A DNA stretch of 59,054 nt from Cyanobacteria bacterium RYN_339 (GTDB lineage Bacteria > Cyanobacteriota > Sericytochromatia > S15B-MN24 > JAQBPE01). Where the stretch lies: positions 1 through 59,054 of the forward strand of contig JAQBPE010000085.1 of the NCBI GenBank assembly GCA_028287685.1. The letters run 5' to 3'. A model generated the notes under the pieces. The model was not told where the DNA came from, ran no database searches, and saw only the letters and a program-made list of their open reading frames with translations. The translations under genes were made by a program, and so were the position numbers. Below, piece by piece: positions 38,981-46,080 of this stretch. The stretch's first letter is position 1; each line of letters starts with the position of its first letter.

Positions 38981-39817
38981 GTGATCACCTACCCGCAGAT
39001 CGACCCCGTCCTGATCCACGCCGGCCCCTTGCAGATCCGGTGGTACGGGCTGATGTACATCATGGGGTTCATGCTGGGCTACCAGATCCTGCGTAAGCGC
39101 AGCGCCGAAACCAAGCTGAACTTCGACCAGACCGTCCTGATGGACTTCGCCTTCTACCTCTTCGTGGGCGTGTTGCTGGGCGGGCGCATCGGCTACATCT
39201 TGTTCTACAACCCCGTCATGTTCCTCAAGAACCCGATGGAGATGGCGGCGCTCTGGCACGGCGGCATGTCGTTCCACGGCGGCATGATCGGCACGATCCT
39301 CAGCGGCTGGTTCTTCTGCTACCAGAAGAAGGTCTCCTTCTACCGGCTGGCCGACACCGTGATCCCCGCCATCCCCGTGGGCCTGGGGCTGGGCCGCCTG
39401 GGCAACTTCATCAACGGCGAGCTGTGGGGCCGCGAAACCAACGTGCCCTGGGCGATGATCTTCCCGCAGGACATCTCCGGCCACCCGCGCCACCCGTCGC
39501 AACTCTACGAGTTCGTCATGGAAGGCGTGCTGCTCTTCGCCATCTTGTGGATCGGGCGCCGGTTCAACCTGCCCAAGGGCAACCTGTTCTGGCTCTTCAT
39601 CACGTTCTACGGCCTGTTCCGCCTGATCGGCGAGCAGTTCCGCGAGCCGGACGCCCAGCTGATGTACCTGCTGCCGAACATGCTGCCCAACGTCACCGCG
39701 GGCATGGTGCTGAGCCTGCCGATGTTCGTGGGCGGCCTGGTCATGTTCGTGCTAGGCTACTCCTCCCGCTGGCGTCGGGCCTCGGCGCCGGTGCAGCCGG
39801 CCGAAGCGGCCGTGTGA
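38981..39817 (+). CDS. lgt: Prolipoprotein diacylglyceryl transferase
   Basis: IRWYGLMYIMGFMLGY; LLGGRIGYILFYNP; GGMSFHGGMIG; GRLGNFINGELWGRET; RHPSQLYEFVMEGVLLF. Confidence 0.97.
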   Translation: MITYPQIDPVLIHAGPLQIRWYGLMYIMGFMLGYQILRKRSAETKLNFDQTVLMDFAFYLFVGVLLGGRIGYILFYNPVMFLKNPMEMAALWHGGMSFHGGMIGTILSGWFFCYQKKVSFYRLADTVIPAIPVGLGLGRLGNFINGELWGRETNVPWAMIFPQDISGHPRHPSQLYEFVMEGVLLFAILWIGRRFNLPKGNLFWLFITFYGLFRLIGEQFREPDAQLMYLLPNMLPNVTAGMVLSLPMFVGGLVMFVLGYSSRWRRASAPVQPAEAAV

Positions 39818-39824
39818 AGAAACA

Positions 39825-39853
39825 TTGTCCATTGTGAAGAAGCGTCGTATAAT
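39825..39853 (+). promoter_or_regulatory. Sigma70-type promoter for response regulator gene
   Basis: TTGTCC - 17 bp - TATAAT, about 52 nt upstream of ATG 39905. Confidence 0.65.
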
Positions 39854-39904
39854 GCGAGCGTTGGCCCAAGTCGGGTCGTCGCGTAACCCGGGGGTTCACT
39901 CCAC

Positions 39905-40270
39905 ATGAAAAAAATCCTTGTCGTCGAAGATGAAGTAACCAATCAAGAAGTGGCGGAGGTCATCCTCAAGAATCAGGGATTTGTCACCTTCGTCGCCAGC
40001 AACGGGAAGGAAGGCATCGAGAAAGCCATTAGCGAGCAGCCCGACCTGATCCTGATGGACATCCTGATGCCCGTCCTGGACGGCCTCTCCGCTACGGAAA
40101 TCCTCAAGAAGGACGACCGCACGCGCCACATCCCGATCGTCGCCGTGACGGCCAAGGCCTCGAACACGGATCGCCGCGAGGCCGAAACCGCCGGATGTGA
40201 CGGGTTCCTGACCAAGCCTTTCCGGAACCGGACCCTGGTGGAAGTCGTCCGCCAGTTCCTGCCCGAATAG
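39905..40270 (+). CDS. Single-domain response regulator (CheY-like receiver)
   Basis: MKKILVVEDEVTNQEV...DLILMDILMPVLDG...IPIVAVTAKA...GFLTKPF. Confidence 0.95.
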   Translation: MKKILVVEDEVTNQEVAEVILKNQGFVTFVASNGKEGIEKAISEQPDLILMDILMPVLDGLSATEILKKDDRTRHIPIVAVTAKASNTDRREAETAGCDGFLTKPFRNRTLVEVVRQFLPE

Positions 40271-40282
40271 CCAAAGCTTCGA

Positions 40283-40315
40283 AGACCCCCCGCCAGCTTG
40301 GCGGGGGGTCTTTCT
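40283..40315 (+). terminator. Rho-independent terminator of response regulator gene; intron insertion target
   Basis: AGACCCCCCGCC-AGCTT-GGCGGGGGGTCT-TTCT, 12-bp perfect stem. Confidence 0.92.
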
Positions 40316-40555
40316 GTGTGCGCCCGGCACGGGCGCGGACTCGGAGGTGAAAGTCCTCTGCGGGGGGTGGTCCCCCTAACCGCTAGCCAAAGGCAAGGGC
40401 GTCACCGCGAGGTGGGGTCTGAAGGAAGCCCGGGGCAAAGCCTCGACCCGAGGCACACGAACCTGGTAACCAGGCCATCCAGACCGGACGAGCGGGCATA
40501 GTGTCGCGAAGTCCACGGGACCAAGGGGCTGGATGGTGCACCAGGCGGGTGCGAG

Positions 40556-42134
40556 GTGAAAGTCCGCGTTCTTACCCGGGGAGATCTCCCGGTGGTCGGT
40601 CGAGGACCGACAACGCCCGTCGAGAGGCGGGTGTCGAACCAGGAGAAGTCAGCAGAGGTCGTAGTACCCGAGGGGTCGCTCCCCGGAGGGAAGGGCCGAA
40701 CGTCAGTCAGGGAACCGACAGTGGAAGGCTCGACGGAATCGTATAGACAGCTGAAATTGCCATTTGGCGAGCCGGAGCGGGGGGTAGGGGTGAAGCCCCA
40801 AGAGCCCGTGACGGTGCCGAGCGATACCGCGGCGCCCCTACAAGAAGAACCCGACGCAACCGAATCAGCCCTGCTGGAGCAGGTGCTGGACCGAGAAAAC
40901 CTGCTTCGGGCGTTGAAGCGCGTCAAGGCCAACCGGGGAGCGCCCGGAATCGACGGCATGACGGTCATGGAGCTACCAAAATATCTTTTGGAAGCCTGGC
41001 CTGCCATCCGCGAGGCGTTGCGCGCGGGCACCTACCGACCGCAGGCCGTCAGGCGGGTCGAAATTCCGAAACCCGGAGGCGGCGTGCGGCTGTTGGGAAT
41101 TCCCACGGCGCTCGACAGGCTTATTCAACAGGCAATGGCCCAGGTTCTGGGGCCACTCTTCGACCCGTCCTTTTCCGACCATAGCTATGGCTTCCGCCCC
41201 GGACGAAGCGCCCACCAGGCCGTGCAAGCGGCCCGCGGCCCGGGCGTTCATCCAGGAGGGGAGGCGCTTCGTGGTGGATGTGGACCTCGCGCGGTTCTTT
41301 GACCGCGTGAACCACGACATCCTCATGGCGCGGGTAGCGCGGAAGGTGAAGGACAAGCACGTGCTCAAGCTCGTACGGGCCTACCTCGAATCCGGGGTCA
41401 TGGTCGACGGGGTGCACGTCCGGACGGAGGAGGGGACGCCGCAAGGCGGTCCGCTCTCGCCGCTCCTGGCGAACATCCTGCTCGACGATCTGGACAAGGA
41501 GCTCGAAGGGCGCGGGCACACGTTCTGCCGCTACGCCGACGACTGCAACATCTATGTTCGCAGCCGCCGCGCGGGCGAGCGGGTGATGGAGAGCGTGAAA
41601 CGGTTCTTGCAAGAGCGCTTGCGGTTGGTCGTCAACGAGGAAAAGAGCGCGGTGGATCGCCCGTGGAAGCGGAAGTTTCTAGGCTTCAGCTTCACCCACG
41701 GGAAGGACACCACGCGCATCCGCATTGCGACCCCGTCACTCGCCCGCGCGAAGACCCGTATCCGGCAACTAACCTGGCGCTGGAAGGGCCAATCCATGGA
41801 CCGGACGATGACCGACCTCAACGCGTATCTGCGCGGTTGGGGGAACTACTTCGCGCTGACCCAGGCGCCCAGACCTCTTTCGGATCTGGACGAGTGGGTG
41901 AGGCGGAGGCTACGGGCCATCGTCTGGCACCAGTGGAAGAAACCCAAGGCCCGCGCCCGCAACATGATCCGCCTGGGTATCCCGGCGAACAAGGCGTGGG
42001 AGTGGGCCTACTCCGGCAAGAAGGCCTGGAGGATCAGCGGTTCGGCGCCCTTACACAGAGCCCTGGGCAACGCCTATTGGCGTGCCCAGGGGCTTGTGAG
42101 TCTAAAAGAGCTGCAACGCGCGCGTTATAGCTGA
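40556..42134 (+). pseudogene. Group II intron reverse transcriptase/maturase, frameshifted
   Basis: N-part (40556-41302) ...NRGAPGIDGMTV...YGFRPGRSAHQAVQAAR; C-part (ORF 41187-42134) ARAFIQEGRRFVVDVDLARFFDRVNHDIL...GTPQGGPLSPLLANILLDDLD...RYADDCNIYV...LRGWGNYF. Frames join on removing one copy of CGGCCCG (41229-41242). Exact start uncertain. Confidence 0.92.
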
Positions 42135-42135
42135 T

Positions 42136-42172
42136 GAACCGCCGGATGCGGACCCGCACGTCCGGTGGTGTG
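42136..42172 (+). ncRNA. Group II intron domain V (catalytic hairpin)
   Basis: GAACCGCCGGATGCGGACCCGCACGTCCGGTGGTGTG folds like D5 and sits just after the RT stop. Confidence 0.75.
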
Positions 42173-42211
42173 AGAGGGGAGGGGGCGACCCCCTCCCCTA
42201 CTCTATGGCGG

Positions 42212-43042
42212 TTATAGGGGCTGGTCTTCGGGTGGGCGCTGCATCGTGATCACGCGCGGCAGCAGGGGCTCCACGTCCGGCGAGGCCGGCGGGGGCGCCT
42301 GGCCCGGCCAATAACCGCCGCGGTGGAAGGCCGCGAGGCCCAGCCCCAGCATGACGATGGAGCCGGCCGCGACCCACCCGAGGTGCGTTTCCACGCCCGT
42401 TCCCAGGTTCGCGACCACCAGGCCCCAGCTGTTGTTCAAGGCATGCGCCAGGGTGCTGGCCCACAGCGAGCCGCTGCGCCAGAACAGCAGGCCGAACCAG
42501 GCGCCCATCAGCAACCGCGGCACGAAGCCCACCGTCTCGGCGTGGATGAACGAGAAGACCGCGGCCGCTACCAAAATGCCCCAACGCACGCCGAGGCGCG
42601 CCACGGCCGCCTGTTGCACCATGCCGCGGAAGATCAGCTCTTCCGCCAGCGCCGGCAGCAGGGCGATCGCGATCCAGATCCCCACGAAGGCGGGTCCGCT
42701 GCCGGCCACCAAGGCCCCGGGGGTGCCGGAGCCGTGCACGCGCATGTGCATGCCGATGGCCACCTGCATCAGGGCCAACAGCACGTAAACGGGCAACGAG
42801 CAGCAAGCCACGCCGATCGCGAACCAGCGCGAGAGCGGCTGGTAAGGGGGATCGCCGGGCGCCCCGGCGGTGGGCCGGTAGAACGCCACCAACGCGGGCA
42901 CGCCGATGGCCAACGAGGTGATCACGGAGGCCCAGGTCACGGGCGTCTCGCCGGTGTTGTACAGCGCCGCCAGCGCGGTCGCGCCCATCAACAGGCCCGC
43001 GCCGAGCGCGCCTGCCGCGCGTCCCGGCGACGGCGCGTTCAT
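42212..43042 (-). CDS. CPBP-family intramembrane metalloprotease (CAAX/Abi)
   Basis: LAEELIFRGMVQQAAV, FSFIHAETVGFVPRLLMGAWFGLLFWRSGSLWASTLAHALNNSWG. Confidence 0.93.
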   Translation of the reverse strand: MNAPSPGRAAGALGAGLLMGATALAALYNTGETPVTWASVITSLAIGVPALVAFYRPTAGAPGDPPYQPLSRWFAIGVACCSLPVYVLLALMQVAIGMHMRVHGSGTPGALVAGSGPAFVGIWIAIALLPALAEELIFRGMVQQAAVARLGVRWGILVAAAVFSFIHAETVGFVPRLLMGAWFGLLFWRSGSLWASTLAHALNNSWGLVVANLGTGVETHLGWVAAGSIVMLGLGLAAFHRGGYWPGQAPPPASPDVEPLLPRVITMQRPPEDQPL

Positions 43043-43857
43043 CGCGCGACCGCCATGATGGCGGCCTGCATGCGGCCGGTGCGGCCCTGGTCACGGCGCC
43101 AGGAGAAGTAGTGGTCTGCGTCGCAGCTGGTGCAGGCGTGGCTGACGAAGACGTTCTCCGCGCGCAGGCCGAAGGCCAGGAGCTGGTCCCGGTTGGCGGC
43201 GAAGAGGTCGACATGCGGCTTGGGACGGGCGTCACGCACGATCGCGCGTTCCCAGCCGGGCCACCCCTGGGCGGCGATCGCCGCCGCCACTTCCTCGCCC
43301 ACTTCGAAGCAACAAGGCCCGATCGCGGGCCCGATCGCCGCGCGCAGCCGCGCCGGATCGCCGCCCAGCTCGTCCACCATGCGCTGCGCGGCGTTCATGA
43401 CGACGCGTGCCACGGTGCCGCGCCAGCCCGCATGCACGGCCCCCACCGCGCCCGTGCCCGGATCATGCAGGAGGATCGGCGTGCAATCCGCGGTGTAGAT
43501 GCCGATCGGCAGGCCGGGCGTGGCGGAGACGATCGCGTCGCCATAGAGGGTCTCCTGGGCGCGTTGGGCAACCGCCTGCACGTCGCCCCCGTGAATTTGG
43601 TGCATGCCCTGGATCGGGCCGGTCATGCCGAGCGCCGTTGCCCAGGCGGCGCGGTTCCGCCGCACGGTCGCTTCGTCGTCGCCCGCGGAAACGCCCAGGT
43701 TGAGGGCCGCGAACGGACCCTCGCTCTCGCCGCCGCGGCGGGTCGAGAAGCCGTGAGGCGTGCCCAGGGGCGGGCACGCCAACCATGTGACCCCGTTGGG
43801 GGCTGTTTCCAGGCGAAAGGGCTCGTTCATCATGACCAAGGGGGTGACCTGGTCCAT
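43039..43857 (-). CDS. pgeF: Polyphenol oxidase/YfiH-family (peptidoglycan editing factor PgeF-like)
   Basis: GFSTRRGGESEGPFAALNLG; TADCTPILL; GAVHAGWRGTVARVV; IGPAIGPCCFEVGEEV; CTSCDADHYFSWRRDQGRTGRM. Confidence 0.93.
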   Translation of the reverse strand: MDQVTPLVMMNEPFRLETAPNGVTWLACPPLGTPHGFSTRRGGESEGPFAALNLGVSAGDDEATVRRNRAAWATALGMTGPIQGMHQIHGGDVQAVAQRAQETLYGDAIVSATPGLPIGIYTADCTPILLHDPGTGAVGAVHAGWRGTVARVVMNAAQRMVDELGGDPARLRAAIGPAIGPCCFEVGEEVAAAIAAQGWPGWERAIVRDARPKPHVDLFAANRDQLLAFGLRAENVFVSHACTSCDADHYFSWRRDQGRTGRMQAAIMAVAR

Positions 43858-43886
43858 TATACGCGCGCCGCGCCCCGTTGACGTTG

Positions 43887-44630
43887 CTAAAGCGTGAACT
43901 TGTCCGAAGAGATGGTCGGGTTCAGGTTCAGCTTCGTGAACTTGCGGGTGTGGATCACCTGGCCGCGCTCCGTCATCTCGAAGTAAACCGGCAGGTTCCG
44001 GGCGTCGAGCGTGACGCGCATCGCGTCGATGCCGGGGTACTTCGCCGGCTTTGCCAACTCCAGGGTGTTGGCCTTGCCGGTGGCCAGCTTCAACGCGGCC
44101 GGGTTCGCCAGCAACACGCCGACCTGGGTGGCGTAGTCGGTCTGGTCCAGCGTATAGCCGCGCACGGACTTCGAGCGGGCGTCATCCAGGGTGCCGTCCA
44201 GCTTCACGAAGGAGAGGGCGCCGCCCGGGCGCGAGCTGATCTTGCGGGTGCGGGTGCTGAAGACGGACTTGCTGCCCTTCTTGATCGCTTCCGTGGCGTC
44301 CGAAACTTCCAGGCGGTAGCTGCCGGGCTTCTGGAACCAGACGTCGACCTTGGCGATCTCCGTCTCGCTGCCGTTCTTCTCCCAGAAATCGTAGTGACCG
44401 CTCAGCGACTTCACGCCGCCCCAGGCGGCCTGGAAGGCCTGCACCAGTTGGGCCGCGTTGCCGGCAGCGGGACCGCCGGGGACGTTCGGCTGCGGGATGG
44501 TCGGGCCGGTCGGCAGGGAGGGGGTGGTGCCGCCATCGCTGCCGGTGTCCAGCGAAGCATGGTTCCCGGAGGAACCACAACCGGTGGCAACCAGCGCCAC
44601 GAGCGCGATGAAGGGAAGCAAACGGCTCAT
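43887..44630 (-). CDS. LolA-like lipoprotein
   Basis: ATG 44630 MSRLLPFIALVALVATGCGSSG lipobox; LVQAFQAAWGGVKSLSGHYDFWEKNGSETEIAKVDVWFQKPGSYRLEV resembles LolA-type folds. Confidence 0.7.
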   Translation of the reverse strand: MSRLLPFIALVALVATGCGSSGNHASLDTGSDGGTTPSLPTGPTIPQPNVPGGPAAGNAAQLVQAFQAAWGGVKSLSGHYDFWEKNGSETEIAKVDVWFQKPGSYRLEVSDATEAIKKGSKSVFSTRTRKISSRPGGALSFVKLDGTLDDARSKSVRGYTLDQTDYATQVGVLLANPAALKLATGKANTLELAKPAKYPGIDAMRVTLDARNLPVYFEMTERGQVIHTRKFTKLNLNPTISSDKFTL

Positions 44631-44808
44631 CGGGGAGCTCCTTATAGTAAAGAAGTTGTTAAATCTGGTCAGGGGTTTGGTTAAATGCCTATCGAGGAAA
44701 TCCGTCCGGACTTGCTTACTTCTGTTCAGGATGGTTAAGGAAAGATTTAGCCATTGCAAAGCTATGATTAAATGGCTTAACATACGAGGGCGTCCCCCAG
44801 GAGGAACC

Positions 44809-46080
44809 ATGGCCAACCATCGCTTCGTCGCCCCTGCCCTCGCCGCCGCCGTTATCTTGGCTGGTTGTGCCCACCCCGTCACCTCGACGGGTACGATCAA
44901 GGCCGCCACGTCGGCCGCCGCGAAGCTGGCCGCCAGCCGCTTCCCCGTCGGTGACTACGACAACGGCGGGGCTTCGCGCCGCCTGATGGTGGTCAAGTTG
45001 GCCGGTCGCGAGCTGCCTTTGGCGCTGACCCGCCAGACCCGCGGCGGCCCGCGCGTCGTGCAGCGCATCCCCCAATTGGGCGTGGTGGTGGTCGAGATCG
45101 GCCCCGGCCTGGACGTGGCGGACGCCGTGGCGGACTTCAAGATCGACCGCGCCGTGCGCTACGCGGAGCCGGTGAACCTCGTGACCCTCGAGCGCGAGGT
45201 CAACGACCCGCGCGCCGGCGAGCAGTACGCCACCCAGATCACGCACGTCCGCGAGGCGTGGGACGTGCAGATGGGCACGCCCAACACCGTCGTCTGCATC
45301 ATCGACTCCGGCATCGACGTGGGCCACCCGGATCTCAAGGCCAAGATCGTGCCCGAGAGCTACAACGTGCTGGACCACAACAACAAGCCGAACGACGACC
45401 ACGGCCACGGGACCCACTGCGCGGGCATCGCGGCCGCGCTGGCCGACAACAACGAGGGCGGCACGGGCGTGGCGCCCGGCGTCGGCCTGATGTCCGTGAA
45501 GGTGTTGGACGCCGCCGGCCGCGGCAACGACGCGTCGATCGCGGAAGGCATCGTGTACGCCGCCGATCATGGCGCCAAGGTCGCCTCGATGAGCCTGGGC
45601 CTCTACAAGCGCTCCAAGGTGATCGAGGACGCGCTGCAGTATGCCTTGGACCACGACGTCGTGCTGGTAGCCTCCGCCGGCAACAACAACGCGGAGAACG
45701 ACCCCACCACGGCGCCGCACCTGCCCTCCACCTACCCCGGCGTGATCGAGGTGGCCGCGACCGATGGCAAGGATCAGAAGGCGTCGTTCTCGAACTTCGG
45801 CAAGACGGTCTCCGTGGCCGCCCCTGGCGTCGACATCCTCTCGACCTTGCCCACCTACGACGTGGGCCGGCCGCTGAGCTACGGCAAGATGAGCGGGACC
45901 TCGATGGCCTCGCCCTTCGTAGCCGGCCTGGCGGGCCTGGTGCGCAGCCAGTTCCCAGAGCTGAACCGCGAGCAGGTGCGCGCGCGCATCGAGGCTTCGG
46001 CGGACGACCTGGGCACGCCGGGCATCGACAAGGTCTTCGGCCACGGCCGCGTCAACGGCTTCAAGGCCGTTACCCCGTAG
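44809..46080 (+). CDS. Subtilisin-like serine protease (S8), lipoprotein
   Basis: ATG 44809 with AGGAGGAACC; lipobox LAGCAH; CIIDSGIDVGHPDL, HGHGTHCAGIAAA, GKMSGTSMASPFVAG. Confidence 0.95.
   Translation: MANHRFVAPALAAAVILAGCAHPVTSTGTIKAATSAAAKLAASRFPVGDYDNGGASRRLMVVKLAGRELPLALTRQTRGGPRVVQRIPQLGVVVVEIGPGLDVADAVADFKIDRAVRYAEPVNLVTLEREVNDPRAGEQYATQITHVREAWDVQMGTPNTVVCIIDSGIDVGHPDLKAKIVPESYNVLDHNNKPNDDHGHGTHCAGIAAALADNNEGGTGVAPGVGLMSVKVLDAAGRGNDASIAEGIVYAADHGAKVASMSLGLYKRSKVIEDALQYALDHDVVLVASAGNNNAENDPTTAPHLPSTYPGVIEVAATDGKDQKASFSNFGKTVSVAAPGVDILSTLPTYDVGRPLSYGKMSGTSMASPFVAGLAGLVRSQFPELNREQVRARIEASADDLGTPGIDKVFGHGRVNGFKAVTP

What the first reader, a model, noticed from the sequence alone, without database searches (positions are those of the whole stretch)
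40316..42206. Class C-like group II intron inserted exactly behind a rho-independent terminator
The intron starts (GTGTG) directly after AGACCCCCCGCC-AGCTT-GGCGGGGGGTCT-TTCT and ends 5 nt before the stop codon of the converging CPBP gene. Insertion after terminator hairpins is the known preference of group IIC introns, and the ORF has RT and maturase regions without an HNH domain, as expected for that class. It now lies between two convergent genes, so CPBP read-through would be antisense to the intron.
Basis: partly seen in the sequence, partly recalled or inferred. Interest (0 to 1): 0.6.

Follow-up and report, generated by a model that had tools for sequence, protein, structure and literature searches.

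The report
Group IIC intron behind a terminator
This is an ordinary bacterial self-splicing mobile intron of the IIC type, sitting where that type usually inserts, just behind a transcription terminator; its own reverse-transcriptase gene is interrupted here by a 7-base duplication.

Summary
The finding is right in substance. Rfam models hit domains 1-4 and 5-6. D5 and D6 fold with the branch-point A bulged. The encoded protein is a GsI-IIC-type RT/maturase with no HNH domain. A 15-bp terminator hairpin stands immediately upstream.

Three points to correct or add:
(1) The 5' end is most likely 40318 (GTGCG), not 40316 (GTGTG). In 62 related introns the EBS1 loop pairs fully with the last four exon bases in 40 cases at this boundary, and in 3 cases two bases upstream. 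The intron is therefore 40318-42206, 1889 nt.
(2) The RT gene is not intact. A 7-nt tandem duplication (CGGCCCG twice, 41229-41242) shifts the frame. Neither frame has other stops and dN/dS is about 0.2, so the break is recent or an assembly error. A second copy in the same genome (85% identical) has an intact RT.
(3) Both other copies in the host genome, four copies or fragments in relatives of its class, and all other relatives that could be scored also lie behind hairpins.

The host class lacks photosystem genes and looks like part of the Cyanobacteriota. Terminator insertion by IIC introns is already known. This is a new member of a known kind and of low interest.

The parts
39905..40270 (+). 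CheY-like receiver-domain gene whose terminator was the target
   Evidence: Pfam Response_reg E 3e-27; ORF
40281..40313 (+). Intrinsic terminator hairpin, 15 bp stem, 3-nt loop
   Evidence: fold -30.8 kcal/mol, z -5.6
40314..40317 (+). IBS1 (CTGT), last four bases of the 5' exon
   Evidence: pairs with EBS1 AUAG (one G-U); boundary set by 62 scored copies
40318..42206 (+). Group IIC intron, corrected boundaries, 1889 nt
40401..40570 (+). Part of domain I
   Evidence: Rfam RF02001, 120 bits, E 4e-24
40498..40501 (+). EBS1 (ATAG) in its loop
   Evidence: EBS1 covaries with the upstream exon over 62 copies
40611..40696 (+). Group II core segment upstream of the RT domain (Rfam D1-D4-1)
   Evidence: Rfam RF01998, 58.4 bits
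40721..41236 (+). RT gene, first part
   Evidence: TIGR04416 positions 2-115; 84% identical to the intact copy
41229..41242 (+). 7-nt tandem duplication CGGCCCG CGGCCCG that breaks the RT frame
   Evidence: compared with the intact copy in L002
41235..42134 (+). RT gene, second part: RT active site YADD and maturase domain
   Evidence: TIGR04416 positions 114-353; GIIM E 4e-20
42137..42206 (+). Domains V and VI, CGC triad, branch-point A at 42200
   Evidence: Rfam RF00029 45.8 bits; fold z -5.45
42212..43042 (-). Convergent CPBP (Rce1-like) protease gene
   Evidence: Pfam PF02517 E 1e-18

Best explanation
A bacterial group IIC (class C) retrointron that inserted by reverse splicing into the 3' tail of the intrinsic terminator behind a receiver-domain gene. 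Target choice combined the terminator hairpin with a 4-bp EBS1-IBS1 pairing. Read-through transcripts of the receiver gene could splice it out. Its own RT/maturase is disrupted by a 7-nt duplication, so efficient splicing and mobility of this copy would now need protein in trans, for instance from the intact copy on contig C393. Shown: anatomy, class, target, frameshift in the assembled sequence. Inferred: splicing, reverse splicing, trans-complementation.
For: Three Rfam group II hits over gathering score. GsI-IIC RT is the best solved structure, E 4e-164 with the intact sister copy as query. The tree places it with class C. D5 CGC triad, with D5 pairs kept through two-sided changes among 44 distinct sequences. 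D6 with bulged A. A hairpin stands upstream of every copy scored. EBS1-IBS1 covariation: 3.55 of 4 pairs against 2.23 shuffled, 0 of 2000 shuffles reach it. No intron in the same-family genome with the same neighbouring genes.
Against: No exact empty-site allele was available: the same-family relative lacks the receiver gene too. EBS1-IBS1 pairing of the two sister copies is imperfect (2 and 3 of 4). There is no evidence of splicing. The frameshift could be an assembly error in a fragmented genome of 506 contigs.
Confidence: 0.96

Rival explanations
1. The same IIC intron but with the reader's boundary at 40316 (GTGTG).
For: GTGTG also fits the GUGYG consensus; the sister copy in C393 also reads GTGTGCG.
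Against: Relatives align at GTGYG-CCCGGCA, which leaves GT outside. The third copy has TT there, and within one species these two bases vary (GT or GC in Bacillus massiliglaciei). Full EBS1 pairing is 40 of 62 at 40318 and 3 of 62 at 40316.
Confidence: 0.05
2. An IIC-attC intron, that is, inserted at an integron attC site rather than at a terminator.
For: Same class C, and attC sites are also hairpins.
Against: The hairpin is a perfect 15-bp stem, mostly G-C, followed by a short T-rich tail at the end of an ordinary gene. The RT of an integron-borne intron on a Klebsiella plasmid (L134) sits on a separate long branch.
Confidence: 0.02
3. The RT frameshift is an assembly or sequencing error and the element is fully intact.
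For: Contig from a 506-contig genome; a GC-rich 7-nt tandem repeat; no other stops; dN/dS about 0.2 on both sides.
Against: Short tandem duplications are also common real mutations.
Confidence: 0.3

Closest known systems
GsI-IIC, Geobacillus stearothermophilus group IIC intron RT (PDB 6AR1)
   Same: RT plus maturase domain, no endonuclease; near full-length match, E 4e-164 with the intact sister copy
   Different: The window copy has a broken frame
B.h.I1 and other terminator-inserting class C introns (Robart 2007, cited in PMC4424553)
   Same: Insertion directly behind intrinsic terminators, class C protein
   Different: Other host lineage; otherwise the same kind
Intron copy on contig C393 of the same genome (L002)
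   Same: 85% identical, same boundary, behind another terminator
   Different: Intact 468-aa RT
IIC-attC introns of integrons (S.ma.I2 type)
   Same: Class C protein
   Different: Target is attC, not a terminator

Membership tests
Group II introns | Conserved D1-D4 core and D5-D6 | tested here: met
   Three Rfam families over gathering score; D6 bulged A
Group II introns | Splices as a lariat | not testable with these tools
   Needs RNA
Group IIC (class C) | RT in the class C clade | tested here: met
   Best PDB match GsI-IIC, then the E. rectale and R. intestinalis RTs; nine other-class rows split off with 100/99 support; the tree is midpoint-rooted and classes A, B, E and F are not represented by name
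Group IIC (class C) | No HNH endonuclease domain | tested here: met
   Only RVT_1 and GIIM found
Group IIC (class C) | CGC triad in D5 | tested here: met
   CCGC paired with GUGG in the window and in 42 of 44 D5s; that CGC marks IIC is from own knowledge
Group IIC (class C) | Insertion behind an intrinsic terminator | tested here: met
   Hairpin at 40281-40313; hairpin upstream of 64 of 64 scored copies, against 32% of random positions under the same loose criterion
Group IIC (class C) | 5' exon recognised by EBS1 alone, no EBS2; 3' exon by EBS3 | tested here: inconclusive
   EBS1-IBS1 shown; absence of EBS2, and EBS3, not tested
Autonomous mobile intron | Intact RT/maturase gene | tested here: not met
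   7-nt duplication shifts the frame

The most novel reading that the evidence does not exclude
A non-autonomous IIC copy, with its own RT broken, that still splices and moves using protein from an intact sister copy diverged by about 15%, in a non-photosynthetic lineage that looks like Cyanobacteriota.
Probability: 0.12. Interest if true: 0.25.

Novelty: new member of a known kind. Interest (0 to 1): 0.12.

Why it matters
It adds a clean example of a known behaviour in a little-studied lineage, and shows how EBS1-IBS1 covariation across relatives fixes an intron boundary that the GUGYG consensus leaves ambiguous. It changes no general view.

Tried and rejected
Start at 40316: rejected by EBS1-IBS1 covariation. 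attC-type insertion: the site is an ordinary terminator; no integron was seen next to it, though the whole window was not searched for one. A consensus terminator scan did not list this hairpin, probably because the extended stem uses up some of the T tail. The hairpin criterion with 7 pairs is loose (32% of random positions pass); the folding energies (-21.7 against -9.4 kcal/mol on average) are the better contrast. An exact empty site could not be found for lack of close relatives: no same-genus genome was returned and the nearest was same-family.

Full report
Observation. The window holds a group II intron at 40318-42206. Rfam finds RF02001 at 40401-40570 (120 bits), RF01998 at 40611-40696 (58 bits) and the D5-D6 model at 42137-42206 (46 bits), all above gathering score. 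D5-D6 alone folds at -47.8 kcal/mol, z -5.45, with A42200 bulged, the seventh base from the 3' end. Upstream stands a 15-bp hairpin, 40281-40313, -30.8 kcal/mol, z -5.6, behind a receiver-domain gene. Downstream, five bases after the intron, lies the stop codon of a convergent CPBP protease gene.

The 5' boundary. Relatives of the RT were fetched (80 loci) and aligned at the conserved GTGYG-CCCGGCA start. On that register the window starts at GTGCG, 40318, and the exon ends in CTGT. The loop taken as EBS1 by position reads AUAG in the window (40498-40501) and pairs with CUGU with one G-U. Over 62 scored copies the mean pairing is 3.55 of 4 at this boundary, 2.48 two bases upstream, and 2.23 after shuffling partners, with no shuffle of 2000 reaching the observed value. 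The copies are not all independent, since some come from one genome. The two bases before GTGCG vary within single species, as exon sequence should. The two sister copies in the host pair less well (2 and 3 of 4), so this rests on the family and not on each copy.

Class. With the intact sister protein as query, the best solved structure is the GsI-IIC RT, E 4e-164, followed by the RTs of Eubacterium rectale and Roseburia intestinalis, which are class C by own knowledge; T.el4h and LtrA score far lower. A tree of 28 RTs sets nine other-class rows, including T.el4h, apart with 100/99 support, and the window stays on the GsI-IIC side. No HNH domain was found. D5 shows the CGC triad, and four D5 pairs change on both sides with pairing kept in 44 of 44 distinct sequences.

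The RT gene is broken. The two reading frames (ORFs 40556-41302 and 41187-42134) together cover the TIGR04416 model. They are separated by a tandem duplication CGGCCCG CGGCCCG at 41229-41242 that is absent from the sister copy. Neither frame contains a stop on its own side, and dN/dS against the sister copy is 0.26 before and 0.18 after the break. The break is therefore young or an assembly error.

Other copies. The host genome has a complete copy 85% identical on C393, behind AACAGCCACCGGCCC-CA-GGGCCGGTGGCTGTT, with an intact 468-aa RT, and a 5' part on C239 behind GCGCCCCGC-TTGAT-GCGGGGCGC-TTTTTT. Both lie at contig ends, so more copies may be collapsed. In the same class, two copies in G010 and 5' fragments in G002 and G006 also follow hairpins. 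All 64 intron copies with readable flanks, from several phyla, follow a hairpin, with a mean folding energy of -21.7 against -9.4 kcal/mol at random positions. The complete copy in G010 groups with an E. coli plasmid intron and a Thiotrichaceae intron rather than with the window's, which suggests separate acquisitions.

Site before insertion. In G001, same family, the order lgt (+), CPBP (-), laccase (-), then a further gene like the one at 43887-44909 (-), is the same as in the window, with about 12 bases between lgt and CPBP and no intron. The receiver gene is missing there as well, so this is not an exact empty site.

Host. Five relatives of the same phylum carry the photosystem reaction-centre family and none of the host's own class does.

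How it would work. Reverse splicing of the intron RNA-protein complex into the terminator tail, guided by the hairpin and EBS1-IBS1, then copying by the RT, is the established model for this class and is inferred here, not shown. Neither was measured.

Known background. Insertion of IIC introns behind intrinsic terminators, lack of the endonuclease domain in class C, and the IIC/class C correspondence are all described (PMC4424553, citing Robart 2007). The finding is a new member of a known kind.

Noticed in passing
window 41229-41242: 7-nt tandem duplication breaks the RT frame; no other stops on either side.
   Followed up: yes
window 38981-44909; L014: The gene order lgt, CPBP, laccase and one more gene is kept in a same-family genome, but the receiver-domain gene between lgt and CPBP is absent there, so gene, terminator and intron all lie in a variable slot.
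   Followed up: partly
L005, L006, L008, L010: Relatives G002 and G006 carry isolated fragments of related IIC introns (5' ends or D5-D6 only), signs of past turnover in this order.
   Followed up: partly
L114 3029-3408: The complete IIC intron in G010 follows a hairpin shortly behind a tRNA gene.
   Followed up: no
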